Both the position numbers and the translations under genes were made by a program. 39,188 nt of DNA from a virus: positions 1 through 39,188 of IMG/VR virus record IMGVR_UViG_3300028800_000039. The stretch is one strand, 5' to 3'. This document shows positions 3,259-37,704 of the stretch, in pieces. How positions within the stretch are numbered: position 1 is the first letter of the stretch; every line of letters begins with the position of its first letter. The notes under the pieces were generated by a model, which saw only the letters and a list, made by a program, of their open reading frames with translations, had not been told where the DNA came from and made no database searches.

Positions 3259-3687
3259 ATGGTCTTTACTCGGCACTTGCATGAAAACATGGTCTTTAAT
3301 CTCTATCTACTGCATCTATGTGACGGTTTTCCTGCTGGTTCTTGGAGCATAAGGTGGCCTCGGGTCTTGTTAAGTAACGACGAGAAGTTTTCTTATGTGA
3401 CAGCCAAGTCTATAAGCAGCTATTTAGGAGCAGCCTTTGACCCGCAGTTGGTAGATCTAGCTAAGGCCGAGGGTTTGTCGGTTAGATATAAGCAGATGTT
3501 AGATCTATTAGAAGATCCCAAGACAGCCATAGCAAACCTAGCCGTTCTTAAATGTGTAAACGAGACCTTCTTCGGCGAACATGTAAACGAAAATCTGGAC
3601 GTGGGTATGCTCATGGCTCCAATAAGAAAGCTAGCACAAGAGGTATCGCAGAATGACGCAACAGATAGCACAGCTCACAATGGCTGA
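3259..3687 (+). CDS. Hypothetical protein, first rightward gene
   Basis: 142 aa, not recognised. It follows the predicted promoter at 3176-3205, and a GGAGG lies about 19 nt upstream. The sequence ATGGTCTTTA occurs both at the first codon and again at 3289, so the start could be residue 11. A copy of the GCTGCGCATAC repeat (3247-3257) lies directly before the start codon. The C-terminal half is helical (LVDLAKAEGLSVRYKQMLDL). Its 3' end overlaps the next gene by 35 nt. No membrane or catalytic motif is seen. Confidence 0.6.
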   Translation: MVFTRHLHENMVFNLYLLHLCDGFPAGSWSIRWPRVLLSNDEKFSYVTAKSISSYLGAAFDPQLVDLAKAEGLSVRYKQMLDLLEDPKTAIANLAVLKCVNETFFGEHVNENLDVGMLMAPIRKLAQEVSQNDATDSTAHNG

Positions 3688-3988
3688 TTTAGTCGACAGA
3701 ATATCCCAGTTCACTAGTGCTGTGCATACTGCTGCGCATACTACGGATCTAAAGACAGTCGTCAGAAAGATAGAGACTATAATCAGGACTTTTAAATTCG
3801 AAGCAGGCCTAGCTATCAGAAGGAGCAAGAAGACTCTCGACGGCCAATCTCTTCTCAAATACCAAATCAGCAACACGCGCCGCGCCAACAGGTTCTACAC
3901 AAAAAACCGTGACAGAATATTAGCAGAGCAGAAAGAACGAAGAATTTCAAAAATAGCAATCGAATCTATGGTAAAAAATGACAGCTAA
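3653..3988 (+). CDS. Small basic protein with Y-x-KNRDR motif
   Basis: 111 aa, function unknown. The C-terminal third reads RFYTKNRDRILAEQKERR, a Y-x-K-N-R-D-R pattern that recurs in two other small genes here (26331-26531 and 37390-37704). Residues AVHTAAHTTDL near the N-terminus are encoded by a copy of the short GCTGCGCATAC repeat (3731-3741), so the repeat has entered or grown within the coding frame. It overlaps both neighbours (35 nt and 11 nt), which supports one transcription unit. The charge pattern suggests nucleic-acid binding, but no named domain is visible. Confidence 0.6.
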   Translation: MTQQIAQLTMADLVDRISQFTSAVHTAAHTTDLKTVVRKIETIIRTFKFEAGLAIRRSKKTLDGQSLLKYQISNTRRANRFYTKNRDRILAEQKERRISKIAIESMVKNDS

Positions 3989-6004: not shown

Positions 6005-6646
6005 TCATATTGCTACCTCGAATCCTGCTACGCTACCTGCTGCGGATCCTGCCCAGAACTCTTTATTTATCTCCAACAACCCCATCTCCTGCCTCTTAAT
6101 GGCCTTCTGTATAGCCGAGGCACTGACATCGAACTCTTCCCCTATCTTAGCAAAAGACATCCCATCAGCTCTCATCAACAAAATCGCCTCCATTTCAGCA
6201 GCAGTGATACTAGGCTTCCTCCCCTTGCACTTACCCGCTCTCCTGGCTATTGCTAACCCACCCTTAACGCGCTCAGAGATTATGTTCCTCTCTAGCTCAG
6301 CAAAGACCATCAATATCTGGAACATCGCATCTGTGTAAATGTTATTTCCAAACACAAGCCCGATGCTAGCTATCTCTAAAGAAGCCCCCTTAGATTTGAT
6401 GATGTTGGTGTTGGAGATAAAATCCCCTAAGCTGCGACCAAACCTATCTATGGTGTGAACGACAACGACATCACCCTCTTTAAGCGTTGCCAACATCTTC
6501 TCAAATACAGGACGTTGAACACCCTCCTTGCCAGAAAGCTTCTCACAATACATTACATCTACCTTGCCATAGGAGTTAATAGCCTCGACCTGACGCTCCA
6601 AATCCTGATCTTCAGTAGAAACCCTGGTATAACTAATACGACTCAT
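6005..6646 (-). CDS. Serine recombinase (Hin/Pin/resolvase family)
   Basis: 213 aa. The resolvase-type catalytic domain covers about 1-135: Y-T-R-V-S with nucleophile S10 and R8, then TIDRFGRSLGD with R68 and R71, and the long ELERNIISERVKGG helix. A Hin-like helix-turn-helix follows at about 155-186 (MRADGMSFAKIGEEFDVS). These enzymes cut and rejoin DNA at short crossover sites for inversion or resolution. The last residues, AGSAAGSVAG, are encoded by the 12-bp repeat family (6024-6052) and lengthen the normal C-terminus. It starts 1 nt after the previous gene. Likely substrates are the inverted repeat at 5486-5644 or phage multimers; both are inference. Confidence 0.92.
   Translation of the reverse strand: MSRISYTRVSTEDQDLERQVEAINSYGKVDVMYCEKLSGKEGVQRPVFEKMLATLKEGDVVVVHTIDRFGRSLGDFISNTNIIKSKGASLEIASIGLVFGNNIYTDAMFQILMVFAELERNIISERVKGGLAIARRAGKCKGRKPSITAAEMEAILLMRADGMSFAKIGEEFDVSASAIQKAIKRQEMGLLEINKEFWAGSAAGSVAGFEVAI
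6024..6052 (-). repeat. 12-bp repeat units inside the recombinase C-terminus
   Basis: Two 12-bp units (CTGCTACGCTAC and CTGCTGCGGATC on the plus strand). The 29 bases 6024-6052 are identical to 10825-10853 inside the speD gene, which is read from the opposite strand. In the recombinase they encode AGSAAGSVAG. Confidence 0.85.
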
Positions 6647-9712: not shown

Positions 9713-9876
9713 ACGATCAGTGCAACAAACATCCAAAGGCTGACAAAGAAGTATTTAACAGAACACTCGAAGCTATGGTCAAAAACAAGCCAGTAGCTCC
9801 TCCCACATCTTCTCAGGGTGATGGCGACGATTGTAACGGTAAGCAAATTCCCCCGCATACTTTGCAAGGTGCTTAG
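9709..9876 (+). CDS. IS passenger: small coupled 55-aa protein
   Basis: Its ATG overlaps the stop of the membrane-protein gene (ATGA at 9709-9712), so it is translationally coupled. The product, starting MNDQCNKHPKADKEVFNRT, has a short amphipathic helix (KEVFNRTLEAMVKNKPV) followed by a proline- and polar-rich tail. Its 3' end lies antisense over the last ~100 bp of the transposase gene, so the tail's sequence is constrained by the other strand. Function unknown; it may be a partner of the upstream protein. Confidence 0.5.
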   Translation: MNDQCNKHPKADKEVFNRTLEAMVKNKPVAPPTSSQGDGDDCNGKQIPPHTLQGA

Positions 9877-10642
9877 ACGAGACATGGACGTGGGTTCCTC
9901 TGATCGATAGTTTAAGTCTAGCCCAAAATCCCTCTAACGCATTGACATGCACTCCATTAGTTGCATATTCCCCTTTGCTGTGATTGACAGTCTTGTGGGC
10001 ATATCCATGTTCGCTGATGGTCGAATAAGAGCGTAGTTCGTCGCTGTGGATTGTGGTTCCTTCTGCAATGGTTTCCTTGATGATTGGCAGTAGGCAGACT
10101 CTTCTCACGCTTGCTACCACACGAGTCACAATATCACCACCTTGCTCCAGCATGCCAAATAAGATGGTTTTTCCTTCTGCTCCACGACCTCTCTTGCCTT
10201 TCTTTTTCCCACCTTCGTATGTCTCATCAGCTTGCACAGGTTTGTCAGGAGTCCCTAATGTTGGATTGCCATCAACTTTTGCCATATATTTGCGAATCTG
10301 TTGTCCTATCCTCCATGCACATTTGTAGGTGACTCCCAATTGCCTCTTTAATTCCATTGCAGGCACCCCATGACGACTTGTTGAGAACAGATATATCGCA
10401 TAGAACCAGAGAGTTAGTTTCGTGCGAGAGTCTTGGAAAGGAGTGCCAGCGCAGGGAAAAACATGCCATCCACATCGCTGACAGGCATAGGAACGCTCTG
10501 CCCTTACGCGATAGAACTTAGTGTCCTGCTCGCATTTTGGGCATTTACAGTTAAACCCAAAACGAACACGCATGATGTGATCCAAGCATGCATCGTCAGT
10601 GGGGAATTGCTCAAGAAATTGCTGTATGGTAATATTCTTCAA
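9779..10642 (-). CDS. IS1595-family (ISXO2-like) transposase
   Basis: 287 aa, intact. The N-terminal zinc ribbon uses C34, C37, C54 and C57 (CPKCEQD..., CQRCGWHVFP). Residues 61-120 carry the family-typical AGTPFQDSRTKLTLWFYAIY segment. The DDE-type catalytic residues are D139 (VQADETYEGG), D201 (TTIHSDELRSY) and E237 (NALEGFWARLK). It probably starts at TTG 10642 with AGAGGTG just upstream. The enzyme moves DNA bounded by the terminal repeats at 9051 and 10706 and makes 8-bp duplications. All key residues are present, so the element may still be active. Confidence 0.95.
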   Translation of the reverse strand: MKNITIQQFLEQFPTDDACLDHIMRVRFGFNCKCPKCEQDTKFYRVRAERSYACQRCGWHVFPCAGTPFQDSRTKLTLWFYAIYLFSTSRHGVPAMELKRQLGVTYKCAWRIGQQIRKYMAKVDGNPTLGTPDKPVQADETYEGGKKKGKRGRGAEGKTILFGMLEQGGDIVTRVVASVRRVCLLPIIKETIAEGTTIHSDELRSYSTISEHGYAHKTVNHSKGEYATNGVHVNALEGFWARLKLSIRGTHVHVSSKHLAKYAGEFAYRYNRRHHPEKMWEELLACF

Positions 10643-21608: not shown

Positions 21609-24077
21609 ATGCTACTCGAAGGATTCTCTAAGGGCGTCAACCAATATCTACCCGCATTTGCTATTCAAGACGACGAATTCGCCAATCTTATCAATGCCAC
21701 AACGCGTAGGGGAGTCGTCTCTAAGAAATTAGGCACATCAACACTAGGTCAACTAGAATTAGAATACGGCCCCGAAGATATCGGAACAACGACCATATCA
21801 GGCACCTTTTCAGCAACGATAACCGTCACGGCGACTCCTTTCTCAGCATTCTCCCCAGTGTCTCTCATGGTGACTGTAGGATCGACGATCTACACCGATA
21901 ATGGACTCGGATCAGTCGTTCTGGGTGACACGGTCTACGGTACCTTAAATTACGCCACAGGGGAGCTCACTCTCTTCAACGTCTCCCCAAGTACTACTGT
22001 ATCTGTTTCCATAGGATACTATCCAGGACTCCCCGTGATGGGCATAGGAACTTTCCAAAGTGCTACGTTCAACACCAACTTCTTCTTGCTCGTCTTCGAC
22101 ACTAGCTACGCATACACATTTAACTACACGACAAGATCTTTTTTTAACGCCTCTTATTATGCCATGAGTGCTGTGCCCCCCAATCCTGTTCAGTGGTTCG
22201 GAGCCGACTACCAGCAGTTCGACTTTGAAAATTATCAAGACGTGCTCTTTGTGACTAACGGCCAGTCTGCCATTAATGCTAAGTTTGTAACCAACATAAC
22301 CTCTATCGGCCCCAATCTCGTGACTGTATCCATCGTCAACAACGATCTAGTAGTAGGGGATCAGGTTTTCTTCTATGAGGTTGCGGGGATGACTGAGATA
22401 AACGGACTTGTAGGAACAGTGACAATAGCAGGAAATCCAACTTTCACCGCCACTCTATCGGGCCCAACAGTGACATTATCTGCCTACACATCCGGGGGCA
22501 TCTGTCAATACCTGACCTCAAGCGCAGCCAATCCAACGGCTAATGGCATAAGAATATATCTCGAGACACCCTCCTACTCAGGCTTTCAGAACTTTGCTCC
22601 CCCAATAATCCCTTCGGGCCTCGGACAGACCGTATATTACATCACGGGAGCCAAGTTGATCCTTCAGTACGGTAACAGACTTCTTATGTTAGGCACAACG
22701 CTAACTTCTGCTGCTGGGAATGTCATCCAAGAGACTAGCACGATAAGATACAGCCAAATAAACCAAGCTCTATACACGGAAGATCCCAGTGCCTGGTGGG
22801 AAACACCCATCGGAACAGGTGGATTCATCAATATTGCAGGCAACCAGGCAATAGTCTCAGCAGAAGTCTCTTACGGGCAGCTAATCCTAGGGATGTCTTT
22901 CTCGTACGTAAAAGTCGTTGCCACTAGCAGTTTCCTGCAGCCTTTTGTCAGCGATACAATCAGCAACGTCTATGGCTCTATATGCCCATTCTCATCAGTT
23001 CTGCTTGACAACGCGGTCTTAGGCATAAACACTGTTGGCATAACACTAGCAACCACCAACGACGTTCAGCGCATAGACGCAATGACCATTCCTGATGCGA
23101 CACAAAACATTTCCAGAGACAACAACGGACTGCTAAGGGTCTGCTGCATCAGAGATTATCTACAGCAGCTAATATACTTTACTTTCCCCGTAGACCCGCT
23201 CATCTACCCGTCCCAGACCATAGTCCTTAATCACATAGAGAATAACTGGAGCTTCTACCAAGAGACATTTACCTGCTACGGACAGTACCTAGAACAAAAA
23301 GACTCTTTAACATGGAACACTCAAGAGACCTGGGCAGCAGTTCCCTACTGGGGTGATTTGAGCGGTGCCACAGGGACAACACAAGTAGCAGGGGGAACAC
23401 CCACAGGAGCTGTCCTTCTCAAGGGAAATGCCACCTATAACCAGCCCTACATGATTATCCAGTCGGTGACCCCTGAGAGTTCCTACACAGCCCTTCAAAT
23501 CAACAACCACAACCTCCTGCAAGGCCAATATATATTTATAGAAAACTGCCTGGGGACGACCTCTTTAAATGGCATTAGCACCCTTGTCGTGCAGGTCATC
23601 GACAACAATAACATTCAGGTAGCGGCTCTAACAACAGGGGTTTATGGTGGACTAGGTGTCGCTGCGGTCACTGACAACTTTTTAATTCAGACAAAGCAGT
23701 TCAACCCCAACTGGCAAATAGGCCAAGGAGCCGAACTGTCAACACTACGACTTTTATTCGGCACAACACCCTTCGGTCAGATATCGGGATATGTATCTCA
23801 AGACTTCATCCCCTTTTCAACCGACAATACAATCGGCGATGCGGTAATCCTACAAAACATCATCGGCACATCACCAGACACCAACCTAGGTCTATCGGGA
23901 CTGCAATACCAACAAAGCTTCATATGGCATCGAATGCCAGTTCTTAATACAGGGCAGACGCTACAGCTATCGCTATTCCTGTCAGACACACAGATGCAGA
24001 CTACTAATTACTGCCAAAGCCCTGTGGTGTTAGCGGCACTCCTAATGAACATGACTGAGCGGGGACAGGTCATCTAA
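21609..24077 (+). CDS. Tail hub / DNA-stabilisation protein (P22 gp10-like)
   Basis: 822 aa. The opening GFSKGVNQYLPAFAIQDDEF...NLINATTRRGVVSKKLG is characteristic of podoviral hub proteins that plug the portal-adaptor channel. The body is beta-rich, as in the gp10 propeller-like hub. Two FCCH-like modules are inserted, near residues 235-300 (VSIVNNDLVVGDQVFFYEV) and 620-675 (LQINNHNLLQGQYIFIENC). It is longer than P22 gp10 (472 aa), mainly because of these insertions. It overlaps the leftward 24074 gene by 4 nt at the 3' ends. Confidence 0.78.
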   Translation: MLLEGFSKGVNQYLPAFAIQDDEFANLINATTRRGVVSKKLGTSTLGQLELEYGPEDIGTTTISGTFSATITVTATPFSAFSPVSLMVTVGSTIYTDNGLGSVVLGDTVYGTLNYATGELTLFNVSPSTTVSVSIGYYPGLPVMGIGTFQSATFNTNFFLLVFDTSYAYTFNYTTRSFFNASYYAMSAVPPNPVQWFGADYQQFDFENYQDVLFVTNGQSAINAKFVTNITSIGPNLVTVSIVNNDLVVGDQVFFYEVAGMTEINGLVGTVTIAGNPTFTATLSGPTVTLSAYTSGGICQYLTSSAANPTANGIRIYLETPSYSGFQNFAPPIIPSGLGQTVYYITGAKLILQYGNRLLMLGTTLTSAAGNVIQETSTIRYSQINQALYTEDPSAWWETPIGTGGFINIAGNQAIVSAEVSYGQLILGMSFSYVKVVATSSFLQPFVSDTISNVYGSICPFSSVLLDNAVLGINTVGITLATTNDVQRIDAMTIPDATQNISRDNNGLLRVCCIRDYLQQLIYFTFPVDPLIYPSQTIVLNHIENNWSFYQETFTCYGQYLEQKDSLTWNTQETWAAVPYWGDLSGATGTTQVAGGTPTGAVLLKGNATYNQPYMIIQSVTPESSYTALQINNHNLLQGQYIFIENCLGTTSLNGISTLVVQVIDNNNIQVAALTTGVYGGLGVAAVTDNFLIQTKQFNPNWQIGQGAELSTLRLLFGTTPFGQISGYVSQDFIPFSTDNTIGDAVILQNIIGTSPDTNLGLSGLQYQQSFIWHRMPVLNTGQTLQLSLFLSDTQMQTTNYCQSPVVLAALLMNMTERGQVI

Positions 24078-24334
24078 TAAGAAATGCTAGTTAGCGTTTT
24101 TCCCGAAAGACGAGTCTTCATCCTAAATAGACTTTTTTTGCACGAGACACACAGCATTTCATAGATATAATCACCAGGAAGATTTCCGTTTTCCAACCTC
24201 AACTCCCTAGCATCAACATAACCAACATGTGTCTCGGGATCATGCCTCTTGTAGCCAAAGGAACGCCACTCATCGGTTCCACAAGGGCAAGTTTTGCCTC
24301 GAAATAGCCCTGCATCGACTTGATGGTATTCCAT
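24074..24334 (-). CDS. Small zinc-ribbon protein A
   Basis: 86 aa. Paired cysteines C-P-C-G near 17-20 and C-V-S-C-K-K near 62-67 form a probable zinc ribbon. The stretch LPGDYIYEMLCVSC resembles LPGDRSVWILCRKC in the neighbouring gene, so the two are paralogues. AGAGGGAGA precedes ATG 24334. It lies at the end of a leftward unit led by the winged-helix gene. A transcription- or DNA-related role is plausible but not shown. Confidence 0.65.
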   Translation of the reverse strand: MEYHQVDAGLFRGKTCPCGTDEWRSFGYKRHDPETHVGYVDARELRLENGNLPGDYIYEMLCVSCKKSLFRMKTRLSGKTLTSISY

Positions 24335-24336
24335 AT

Positions 24337-24507
24337 CTAGTCTCCCTCTGCTAGAGTTGGAGTCGAAGTAACACGCTGTGATACCAAGTCGTTAAGCCCA
24401 CACTTTCTACACAGTATCCAAACAGACCTATCACCAGGAAGATGAAATGGTGGCTCTCCTTTCTCAAAGTCACAAGCTCCGCACCAGCTACAACGCGTTA
24501 TATCCAT
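24337..24507 (-). CDS. Small zinc-ribbon protein B
   Basis: The frame extends upstream to 24582, but ATG 24507 has an ideal AGGAG (ATAGGAGAAAAA before ATG) and removes a long overlap with the upstream gene, so 56 aa is preferred. The zinc-binding pattern is C-x2-C-x2-C near 6-12 and LC-R-K-C-G near 37-41. Paralogue of the protein encoded 2 nt downstream (shared LPGD..LC..C). It overlaps nothing and follows the winged-helix gene by 25 nt. Confidence 0.65.
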   Translation of the reverse strand: MDITRCSWCGACDFEKGEPPFHLPGDRSVWILCRKCGLNDLVSQRVTSTPTLAEGD

Positions 24508-24532
24508 TTTTTCTCCTATCTCGATGTGTTGG

Positions 24533-25750
24533 TTAAAAAAGATGCGCAAACCTATCTTCACAAACATATCCCTGTGAGGCAAGAACTTTATCGTGATTAA
24601 TTTCTGGCAACACGTCCTGTATGCATAGCTCTTGTCCTCCCATAGACCTAAGAAAGGAATTCAAAGCGTCAAGGTCTGATTCACTAGAGATCTTCTTCAA
24701 AGGCCTTTCTTCTGCAAGCATTGATGGCTGCTTCTTCCGCTTTTCATGCAGCCTGAGTTGCTCGCTAACATAGAGATTCTGTTTTTCAAGCGTTTCGTTA
24801 GCAGGCTTAACATCGTAGTACTTGAAGTTGGCCCAAGCAACAGGGTTTTTTATCGCTAATTTGCCAGACCCGATTAGCCTTGCGTTGGTGAGCACGTACT
24901 CGTCCCATAGAGATCTCCTCTCGGCAAGCGGAATTCGGGCCAGTCGGTAAAAGAACCAGTGGCGCAGCTCTTCTTTTTTGACGGCATCCCCGCGGAGAAC
25001 ACTATCTTCAATAGCCTTAACTTCTGCTGCTGAAGTAAACTTTGTTTTAACTAATGGAACTCTCGGTGGGCCAGTTCTGCCAGTTCCCCTGTTGGGTTTT
25101 GAAAGAGAGCTTTTCTGGCTAGAAACCTGGTCAGTTCCGTTAGTTCGGTTAGTTTTGTTAGATGTATAGGTGCTTCGCAAGCTCTCTTTCAAATTTCTTG
25201 TGGGGAAGAGGAGCTTCGAGGGTGACATCTTATGAGTCTTATATGGATTCTTATTACCTTCTATAATGCATTTCGCACTTTTCATCCGACGAAGTGTTTT
25301 TTCGTATTTTCCAGTCGTAGTGTAGCTCTTGGTGCGGTTTTGGAATTTGTCAAGGTCTCCAGGCGCTTTTGAGGGACGTTTTAGCTTGCATCGTCTTATC
25401 TGTGCTGCGGAATAGTGTCGTTTAGGCGCGAAGAATCCCGACTCAATATACCCCAGAAGTTCTAGTTTCTTGAGAGCCCTGTGCACATTGTCTTTGTTTG
25501 CGCTGGGAGTCTTGTGCTTTAGATAGGACACCATCGTCTTGAGCGTTTGGAAGGTGTAGACCTTAGGATGCGTGGCGTTTGTGTCCTTGACCGTGCCTGT
25601 TCCGTTTCGGATGTTGAGTTTCTTCCAAAACTTAAGATGCCTGTAGACAGTTAGATCAAGAGAAGAAAGTTTTTTTGAGCAAGCGTATTGTTTTTGCTTT
25701 TTTTTCTTCGGATAAATGTGATTTGGTGTTAGTCTGTTCATCGATGACAT
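24533..25750 (-). CDS. Basic winged-helix DNA-binding protein, possible replication initiator
   Basis: 405 aa, rich in Lys/Arg. Residues ~31-106 look like a winged helix: LTVYRHLKFWKK, then a recognition region ANKDNVHRALKKLELLGYIESG. Residues ~115-225 are a basic, disordered linker. Residues ~230-405 are helical and mixed. Four 41-bp direct repeats lie immediately upstream, and the first contains its own start codon. A wHTH protein next to iteron-like repeats suggests a Rep-type initiator or an autoregulated transcription factor. Translation would be coupled to three upstream micro-ORFs (TGATG). The TNKTNRTNGT residues come from GTTAG-type short repeats. Confidence 0.65.
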   Translation of the reverse strand: MSSMNRLTPNHIYPKKKKQKQYACSKKLSSLDLTVYRHLKFWKKLNIRNGTGTVKDTNATHPKVYTFQTLKTMVSYLKHKTPSANKDNVHRALKKLELLGYIESGFFAPKRHYSAAQIRRCKLKRPSKAPGDLDKFQNRTKSYTTTGKYEKTLRRMKSAKCIIEGNKNPYKTHKMSPSKLLFPTRNLKESLRSTYTSNKTNRTNGTDQVSSQKSSLSKPNRGTGRTGPPRVPLVKTKFTSAAEVKAIEDSVLRGDAVKKEELRHWFFYRLARIPLAERRSLWDEYVLTNARLIGSGKLAIKNPVAWANFKYYDVKPANETLEKQNLYVSEQLRLHEKRKKQPSMLAEERPLKKISSESDLDALNSFLRSMGGQELCIQDVLPEINHDKVLASQGYVCEDRFAHLF

Positions 25751-25791
25751 CAGGCGCCTTCCTTTTGGGCTTGACTGTTCATTGATGACAT
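25750..25791 (-). CDS. Micro-ORF 3 of a coupled chain (13 codons)
   Basis: ATG 25791, product MSSMNSQAQKEGA, stop TGA overlapping the ATG (25750) of the 405-aa winged-helix protein, which itself begins MSSMNR. The shared MSSMN start shows that the repeat unit is a copy of the gene's own translation-initiation region. Confidence 0.4.
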   Translation of the reverse strand: MSSMNSQAQKEGA

Positions 25792-25832
25792 CAGGTGCTT
25801 TCCTTTTGGGCTTGATTGTTCATTGATGACAT
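25791..25832 (-). CDS. Micro-ORF 2 of a coupled chain (13 codons)
   Basis: ATG 25832 overlaps the previous stop. The product is MSSMNNQAQKEST, with its stop overlapping the next ATG as TGATG. Same ribosome site and spacing as the neighbouring copies. Confidence 0.4.
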   Translation of the reverse strand: MSSMNNQAQKEST

Positions 25833-25870
25833 CAGGTGCTTTCCTTTTGGGCTTGACTGTTCATTGACAT
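25832..25870 (-). CDS. Micro-ORF 1 of a coupled chain (12 codons)
   Basis: ATG 25870, product MSMNSQAQKEST, stop TGA at 25834-25832 overlapping the next ATG as TGATG. It is preceded by AAAAGGAAGG. It arises from repeat copy 4 reading into copy 3. Whether it is translated is inference from the start, ribosome-site and stop/start spacing. Confidence 0.4.
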   Translation of the reverse strand: MSMNSQAQKEST

Positions 25871-25896
25871 CAGGGGCCTTCCTTTTGGGCTTGGAT

Positions 25897-26061
25897 GTGT
25901 TTGTATTGCTGCGTCAAGTCGCCCGCCGTCTGATAAACAACAAGAGATTTGACCAGCAAGTATTTTTACTACACTATAGAACAATACAACGTTTATCCTC
26001 AAGCTGTAAAAGGCCTGGGGATTTTTTATTTTTATAGGATTAAATACACAGCCTCGATACG
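25897..26061. other. Intergenic stretch between the 41-bp repeats and the omega-RNA element
   Basis: AT-rich, with no convincing gene on either strand. It must hold the promoter for the leftward winged-helix gene. GGCCTGGGGATTTTTTATTT (near 26010-26030) resembles a weak terminator tail on the plus strand, but no clear stem precedes it. Confidence 0.4.
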
Positions 26062-26313
26062 ATAAGTGCTGTGATTAAATGTCACTTATAGGCGGAGGGG
26101 CGACCCGTCAAAAGCCTGTGGAGCTTGACATAAGACTATGCTCTGCTGCCGTAGTATAGAGTTGGGATGTCGCAAGGCATCGCCGTAAAACTGAAGCGGC
26201 AACATAGCGTCGAGCTGTGAAGCAGGAACCCGTAGAAACGAGTTAGTGTTCGCTTAGGCGTGCACTATCCGTCGTATGGAATCCCCGTCTTTTAATGCGG
26301 GGAGGATGTCAAA
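26062..26313 (+). ncRNA. Orphan omega-RNA / right end of an IS200/IS605-type element, no tnpB
   Basis: The 3' half has the hallmarks of a TnpB guide-RNA scaffold and transposon right end: GTGAAGCAGGAACCC (a remnant of the usual TnpB VKQE tail codons), then GGAATCCCCGTC, a CCCCGT/GCGGGG hairpin (26283-26302) and GGGGAGGATGTCAA. Upstream are a GTCAAAAGC/GCTTGAC stem (26107-26129) and a 7-bp perfect hairpin ATAAGTG/CACTTAT (26062-26089) that could be the left-end hairpin. No tnpA or tnpB exists in the genome. The bases just after 26313 would be the guide. Limits are approximate. Confidence 0.7.
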
Positions 26314-26330
26314 TCTTCTAACTCTTTGTT

Positions 26331-26531
26331 TTAACCCAACTGAGCTTTTAACCTATCTCGCCTTTCTTTGGCTTCTCTGAGGCATCTTTCCCTGTTTCTG
26401 TCGTAATAACTTTCTTTCTCTTGCCTTCCGTAAAGAATCTCTTGAATCGTCTCTGGCCCAAGAACGATATTAATCGCCAACACTCTTTCTCTCATCTCGA
26501 AAAACCATTTTAAAGCTTCCTCATCAAACAT
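26331..26531 (-). CDS. Small basic protein with Y-x-RNRER motif
   Basis: 66 aa. The N-terminal half is helical and acidic (MFDEEALKWFFEMRERVLA). The C-terminal half reads YYDRNRERCLREAKERR, the same Y-x-[KR]-N-R-[DE]-R...E-A-[KR]-E-R pattern as in the genes at 3653 and 37390. AGGAG lies 5 nt before ATG 26531. The 3' end abuts the omega-RNA element, whose presumed guide segment would be antisense to it. The basic helix suggests nucleic-acid binding. Function unknown. Confidence 0.6.
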   Translation of the reverse strand: MFDEEALKWFFEMRERVLAINIVLGPETIQEILYGRQEKESYYDRNRERCLREAKERRDRLKAQLG

Positions 26532-37389: not shown

Positions 37390-37704
37390 CTACTCACACA
37401 AAGAACGCCGTCTTTTTCGCAGCTCGGCCCTCTTCTTGTTGATGTGATCTTTGTTTTTTTGCCAGTATGTTTTAACTCGCCTACTAATTCTTTCTTTTTG
37501 CTCGGCAGTCAGATAAGCTTTTGTTTTGTGATAACGCTCTCTAGCCTCCTGGCAAAACCTATCTCTGTTCTTCTGATACCATGCCTTTTTCCAGGCCTTT
37601 TTGTCGAGATTTTTCCGTTCAAGCTCCTCGTCAGCTAGCTGTTGTGCAAGAGCCTCCTTCTTAGCCTTAATGATGTCCTGCATCCGATCAAAGGTGCTTT
37701 TCAA
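37390..37704 (-). CDS. Basic coiled-coil protein with Y-x-KNRDR motifs
   Basis: 104 aa from TTG 37704, which overlaps the previous stop (TTGA); ATG 37683 is an alternative. Long charged helices carry two copies of the motif: AWYQKNRDRFCQEARERYHK and TYWQKNKDHINKKRAELRK. The same pattern occurs in the genes at 3653 and 26331. Very basic, so nucleic-acid binding is likely. Last gene of the leftward early operon. Confidence 0.65.
   Translation of the reverse strand: MKSTFDRMQDIIKAKKEALAQQLADEELERKNLDKKAWKKAWYQKNRDRFCQEARERYHKTKAYLTAEQKERISRRVKTYWQKNKDHINKKRAELRKRRRSLCE

What the first reader, a model, noticed from the sequence alone, without database searches (positions are those of the whole stretch)
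25750..25896. Chain of three stop/start-coupled micro-ORFs made by repeating a gene's own translation start
Four 41-bp repeats precede the winged-helix gene. Because 41 is not a multiple of 3, each copy's ATG opens a 12-13 codon frame that ends in TGA overlapping the next copy's ATG (TGATG). The last stop overlaps the real start. The peptides begin MSMN or MSSMN, as does the gene (MSSMNR). Ribosomes would have to terminate and restart four times to reach the gene. Copy number could set expression, as a repeat-tuned translational attenuator, while the near-palindrome TGATGACATCA in each copy may bind the protein itself. I know of no described example of exactly this design.
Basis: seen in the sequence. 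Interest (0 to 1): 0.82.

Follow-up and report, generated by a model that had tools for sequence, protein, structure and literature searches.

The report
Tandemly duplicated gene start, micro-ORFs
In this phage, the short stretch that tells ribosomes where to start an unknown gene has been copied four times in a row, which makes three tiny stop/start-linked reading frames before the gene; the same arrangement is known from mycobacterial MIRU repeats and has arisen separately in other microbes, so it is real and instructive but not a new kind of switch.

Summary
On the minus strand, four copies of a 41-bp unit (spacing 38, 41, 41) precede a 405-aa ORF. Each copy carries an ATG. The first three open 12-, 13- and 13-codon frames, each ending in a TGA that overlaps the next ATG (TGATG); the last overlaps the gene's start.

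Every copy, including the one at the gene, has its own AAGGA Shine-Dalgarno 8 nt before its ATG. Ribosomes can therefore start directly at the gene and need not restart three or four times. The near-palindrome is intact in only two copies. 'Winged helix' is not supported by any search.

A design survey found the same self-derived array before other genes: an Acidimicrobiia permease, a Methanobrevibacter FecCD gene and a phage zinc-ribbon gene. It also found one before nusA in a Mycobacterium, where the unit is a dispersed MIRU-like repeat. MIRUs are a described system of repeated micro-ORFs coupled by stop/start overlap. Relatives of three analogues mostly lack the array, so these are recent duplications.

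Best reading: a tandem duplication of the gene's own start region, tolerated because each junction is translationally coupled. It works like serial bicistronic leaders; nothing here shows attenuation or repeat-tuned control.

The parts
25734..25893 (-). tandem array, 4 copies of a 41-bp unit (one copy 38 bp)
25832..25870 (-). micro-ORF 1, MSMNSQAQKEST*, stop TGA overlaps next ATG
25791..25832 (-). micro-ORF 2, MSSMNNQAQKEST*, stop TGA overlaps next ATG
25750..25791 (-). micro-ORF 3, MSSMNSQAQKEGA*, stop TGA overlaps the gene's ATG
24533..25750 (-). 405-aa ORF of unknown function (orphan), start ATG inside the last repeat copy
   Evidence: no relatives
25759..25763 (-). Shine-Dalgarno AAGGA of the gene itself, 8 nt before ATG 25750
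25800..25804 (-). Shine-Dalgarno AAGGA of micro-ORF 3
25841..25845 (-). Shine-Dalgarno AAGGA of micro-ORF 2
25879..25883 (-). Shine-Dalgarno AAGGA of micro-ORF 1
25871..25963 (-). open 31-codon frame (no ATG) ending ...QAQKEGP in front of the first TGATG; possible relic of the upstream partner of the duplicated junction, or chance
25973..26002 (-). weak sigma-70-like promoter candidate upstream of the array; as many sites found as expected by chance

Best explanation
A local tandem duplication copied the gene's own translation-initiation region (Shine-Dalgarno plus TGATG start plus about 5 codons) three extra times. Because the unit is 2 mod 3 long and the start sits in TGATG, each extra start opens a micro-ORF that ends exactly on the next start. 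Ribosomes can load at any of the four Shine-Dalgarno sequences. Those that load upstream terminate at TGATG and restart at the next ATG, helped by the Shine-Dalgarno inside the micro-ORF, while others load directly at the gene. The array thus works like several bicistronic leader cistrons in series, the arrangement that lets MIRU repeats sit at gene starts with little harm. Its effect on expression is most likely neutral to mildly positive. Shown: the anatomy, the Shine-Dalgarno sequences, the frames, and the recurrence in unrelated genomes. Inferred: that the micro-ORFs are translated and coupled, and the direction and size of any effect.
For: Copies, frames and overlaps. Own AAGGA at the gene start. 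Independent arrays of the same anatomy: L017 Acidimicrobiia permease (MTEADSSKEGA*, MSEADSSKEGV*, then MSEAALVG...), L069 Methanobrevibacter FecCD, L012 phage zinc ribbon, L085 Mycobacterium nusA. In the permease relatives most have one start with no array, L286 (= L017) has three start copies, and L292 has two with the overlap changed to TAGTG so that both stop and start survive; among the nusA relatives only L256 (= L085) and L268 show arrays, and among the FecCD relatives only L316 (= L069). The L085 unit is dispersed in its genome with 53-bp tandem spacing, as MIRUs are. A review describes MIRUs as inserting at start codons so that their ORF is coupled to the gene, with minimal effect on expression (PMC12548453).
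Against: No expression data and no relatives of this phage gene, so neither translation of the micro-ORFs nor coupling is shown. The excess of periods that are 2 mod 3 among gene-start duplications in my hand-picked survey is not significant (5 of 10, P = 0.21). Intactness of all four copies is expected by chance in about 10-27% of random-substitution simulations, so selection for coupling is unproven. In one MIRU locus the repeat region also carries promoter activity (PMC4213456), so a transcriptional role is not excluded.
Confidence: 0.62

Rival explanations
1. Repeat-tuned translational attenuator: ribosomes must terminate and restart along the chain, so copy number sets expression.
For: Stop/start overlaps at every junction; tandem repeats can change copy number; MIRU copies differ between strains at senX3-regX3 (PMC4213456).
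Against: The gene has its own well-spaced Shine-Dalgarno, one of the stronger ones in the window; no strong inhibitory structure is predicted, and opening energies are similar for all four starts (6.6-8.4 kcal/mol); coupling can saturate with upstream translation (PMC12548453).
Confidence: 0.12
2. DNA element: the repeats are binding sites (operator or iterons) for the protein of the gene, and the micro-ORFs are incidental.
For: Repeats sit directly before the gene; TGATGTCATCA-like matches are enriched in the window, but almost entirely because of the array itself.
Against: The near-palindrome is intact in only 2 of 4 copies, while Shine-Dalgarno, ATG, TGA and frame are intact in all; 38- and 41-bp spacings do not keep a constant helical phase; no DNA-binding family is detected; no second operator array elsewhere in the window.
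Confidence: 0.12
3. Purely neutral slippage: a chance tandem duplication whose frame gives coupled micro-ORFs about one time in three, with no translational or regulatory consequence.
For: In related genomes of the analogues such arrays are sporadic; frame classes in the survey are compatible with chance.
Against: All starts keep good Shine-Dalgarno sequences, so some initiation at them is hard to avoid; the TAGTG overlap in L292 keeps both stop and start.
Confidence: 0.14

Closest known systems
Mycobacterial interspersed repetitive units (MIRU; prototype senX3-regX3, Supply et al. 1997, cited in PMC12548453)
   Same: Units that can be tandem, each with a short ORF whose stop overlaps the next start, placed at a gene's start codon, with copy number that varies. 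The published unit lengths 77 and 53 bp (PMC4213456) are both 2 mod 3, as here.
   Different: MIRUs are a dispersed sequence family (56 and 44 matches in two genomes) and couple by the -4 overlap (ATGA); the window unit occurs at one place only, is derived from the gene's own start, and couples by -1 (TGATG).
Bicistronic design leaders (short coupled leader cistron, expression biotechnology; PMC5995908, and the review cited in PMC12548453)
   Same: A short leader ORF stop/start-coupled to the target gene; from general knowledge the leader also embeds the second Shine-Dalgarno, as here.
   Different: Engineered and with one leader; here natural, with three in series and repeats of the gene's own start.
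Termination-reinitiation coupling at -1 (TGATG) gene overlaps
   Same: Same junction and same expected mechanism.
   Different: Ordinarily one junction between two full genes; here three extra junctions made by duplication.
Leader-peptide attenuators (erm, cat, trp; from general knowledge)
   Same: Short ORFs before a gene.
   Different: No stall motif or alternative hairpins were seen; leader folding is at chance level; the peptides differ mainly by amino-acid-changing substitutions.

Membership tests
MIRU | short ORF in each unit with stop overlapping the next start | tested here: met
   (overlap is TGATG, not ATGA)
MIRU | interspersed: many copies at different loci of the genome | tested here: not met
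   4 matches, all in the array; only the 39-kb phage record can be searched
MIRU | sequence relationship to mycobacterial MIRUs | not tested
   no direct alignment was made; the window unit and the L085 unit share no evident sequence beyond Shine-Dalgarno and TGATG when read side by side
MIRU | copy-number variation between strains | not testable with these tools
   no relative of this locus found
Stop/start-coupled leader cistron (bicistronic-design type) | leader stop overlaps gene start | tested here: met
Stop/start-coupled leader cistron (bicistronic-design type) | Shine-Dalgarno for the gene inside the leader ORF | tested here: met
   AAGGA lies inside each upstream micro-ORF, 8 nt before the next ATG
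Stop/start-coupled leader cistron (bicistronic-design type) | leader translation raises or secures gene translation | not testable with these tools
   needs reporter or ribosome profiling
Attenuating leader peptide | translation-dependent alternative RNA structures or stalling | tested here: inconclusive
   fold z = -1.28, no strong structure; stalling not testable
Iteron or operator array of a DNA-binding protein | conserved binding core in every copy | tested here: not met
   palindromic core exact in 2 of 4 copies
Winged-helix protein | profile or fold match | tested here: inconclusive
   no match; low-confidence models and no PDB match with E below 0.001

The most novel reading that the evidence does not exclude
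Self-derived tandem start arrays with a period of 2 mod 3 are a recurrent, selected way for phages and microbes to set or buffer translation: the duplication multiplies ribosome entry sites while coupling passes ribosomes on, and copy number adjusts output without touching the promoter or the protein.
Probability: 0.12. Interest if true: 0.7.

Novelty: new variant of a known kind. Interest (0 to 1): 0.36.

Why it matters
It is a clean natural example of several translational couplings in series, built from a gene's own start. With the four analogues found here it gives a testable set for whether coupling buffers insertions and duplications at gene starts, as proposed for MIRUs, or tunes expression. 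It also suggests that unannotated tandem repeats at prokaryotic gene starts should be checked for a period of 2 mod 3.

Tried and rejected
Relatives of the 405-aa protein: none in viral contigs, genome contigs, phages, Pfam, PHROGs, NCBIfam or PDB, and none in the five distant-phage records. The repeat sequence itself: none elsewhere. Portal relatives: none in viral contigs. Structure prediction: too poor to use. A three-copy design pattern in viral contigs: no hit. L088 (Bacteroidaceae, four 44-bp copies) looked like the same design, but its last start lies at the 3' end of a glutamate-dehydrogenase-like gene on the other strand and opens only 25 codons, so I dropped it. The Lachnospiraceae/Hungatella 56-60-bp repeats in the survey open only short frames and were not counted. 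Frame-class enrichment (5:2:3) was tested and is not significant.

Full report
What is there. The window is a 39,188-bp IMG/VR virus record with a P22-type portal and a terminase. On the minus strand, between structural genes on the plus strand, lies a 405-aa ORF (24533-25750) preceded by four copies of a 41-bp unit. Read 5' to 3' the unit is CAAGCCCAAAAGGAA(A/G)GC(A/C/G)CCTGATGTCATC(A/G)ATGAACAG(T/A), with spacing 38, 41, 41; the first copy lacks three bases. The ATGs at 25870, 25832 and 25791 open frames of 12, 13 and 13 codons, and each stop is the TGA of TGATG shared with the next start; the last is shared with the gene's ATG. This can only happen when the period is 2 mod 3. The array is far beyond chance.

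Each copy includes AAGGA 8 nt before its ATG. The gene therefore has its own ribosome-binding site, with predicted anti-SD pairing among the stronger ones in the window. The leader does not fold unusually well (z = -1.28), and opening energies are similar for all four starts. Serial restarting is possible but not obligatory. The near-palindrome TGATGTCATCA is exact in only two copies, whereas Shine-Dalgarno, start, stop and frame are intact in all four. That is more in keeping with translation than with a DNA-binding site, although random substitutions would leave everything intact in 10-27% of simulations, so it is not strong evidence. The protein has no detectable relatives, and 'winged helix' could not be confirmed.

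Where it comes from. I scanned viral and prokaryotic genome contigs for two AAGGA-7-TGATG starts 33-61 bp apart and checked frames and repeat identity. The same anatomy, micro-ORFs that copy the gene's own N-terminus and end on the next start, stands before four genes that give Pfam matches: a permease in an Acidimicrobiia genome (35 bp, two micro-ORFs), FecCD in Methanobrevibacter (59 bp, one), nusA in a Mycobacterium (53 bp, at least one plus a related 28-codon frame) and a zinc-ribbon protein in another phage contig (44 bp, two; this match is below Pfam's own cut-off). Relatives show that arrays are sporadic. Most permease relatives have a single start; L286 (= L017) has three copies, and L292 has two, with TGATG changed to TAGTG so that stop and start both survive. 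Among FecCD relatives only L316 (= L069) has it. Among nusA relatives only L256 (= L085) and L268 show arrays. These are recent duplications at gene-start junctions.

Known kind. The Mycobacterium unit occurs 56 times in that genome and 44 times in a relative, often with 53-bp tandem spacing. That is the pattern of MIRUs, whose published unit lengths of 77 and 53 bp are also 2 mod 3 (PMC4213456). A 2025 review describes MIRUs as repeats that insert at start codons so that their ORF is coupled to the gene, probably with minimal impact on expression, citing Supply et al. 1997 (PMC12548453). The same review notes that short coupled leader ORFs are used in biotechnology and that coupling can saturate. 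The window array is not a MIRU (single place, self-derived, -1 instead of -4 overlap) but works on the same principle.

Mechanism. Most likely the array is a tolerated duplication of the gene's start region that acts like serial bicistronic leaders: ribosomes enter at any of four sites and are passed on by TGATG coupling, with little or mildly positive effect on the gene. Attenuation, copy-number tuning and self-binding by the protein remain possible but have no positive evidence. Selection for the coupled frame could not be shown: gene-start duplications in the survey, chosen by hand, split 5:2:3 by period 2, 1, 0 mod 3 (P = 0.21). Because the gene starts inside the last copy, a promoter between array and gene is impossible unless the real start is further in; promoter-like sites upstream are no more frequent than chance.

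Limits. One uncultivated virus record, no relatives of the locus, no expression data, host unknown, and near-identical short repeats may be miscounted in assembly.

Noticed in passing
window 26045-26320, + strand: Structured stretch (fold z = -3.96) resembling the 3' end of IS200/IS605 tnpB elements (omega-RNA and right end): ends GAATCCCCGTCTTTTAATGCGGGGAGGATGTCAA, matches the 3' end of a transposase gene next to an IS200/IS605 tnpA in an Arsenophonus plasmid, weak Rfam HgcC match (E 0.0099), and a short frame VKQEPVETS* like a TnpB C-terminus. No TnpB domain is found in the window, so it may be a relic, a non-autonomous element or an orphan guide RNA.
   Followed up: partly
window 9779-10642, - strand: IS1595-family transposase, 49% identical to one on a Sulfitobacter plasmid.
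   Followed up: partly
window 3653-3988 (+), 26331-26531 (-), 37390-37704 (-): Three small basic ORFs share a Y..KNRDR / NRERCL..AKER-like motif, seen by eye in the translations; possibly a small repeated family.
   Followed up: no
window 24074-24582, - strand: Two small ORFs with CxxC pairs (zinc-ribbon-like) follow the 405-aa gene on the same strand; no family match.
   Followed up: partly
L268 upstream of position 1500 (Mycobacterium nusA): Several MIRU-like copies with 53-54-bp spacing directly before nusA; the last joins the gene by an ATGA overlap.
   Followed up: partly
L292 around position 1497: Permease start reached through a micro-ORF whose overlap is TAGTG instead of TGATG, keeping both stop and start.
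   Followed up: partly
L061 minus strand, positions 6454-6510 of the reverse complement (Jiangella): An 18-codon micro-ORF sits between an rpsL-like C-terminus and an RpsG-like N-terminus with TGATG overlaps on both sides; not a clear repeat. Gene names from reading the sequence.
   Followed up: no
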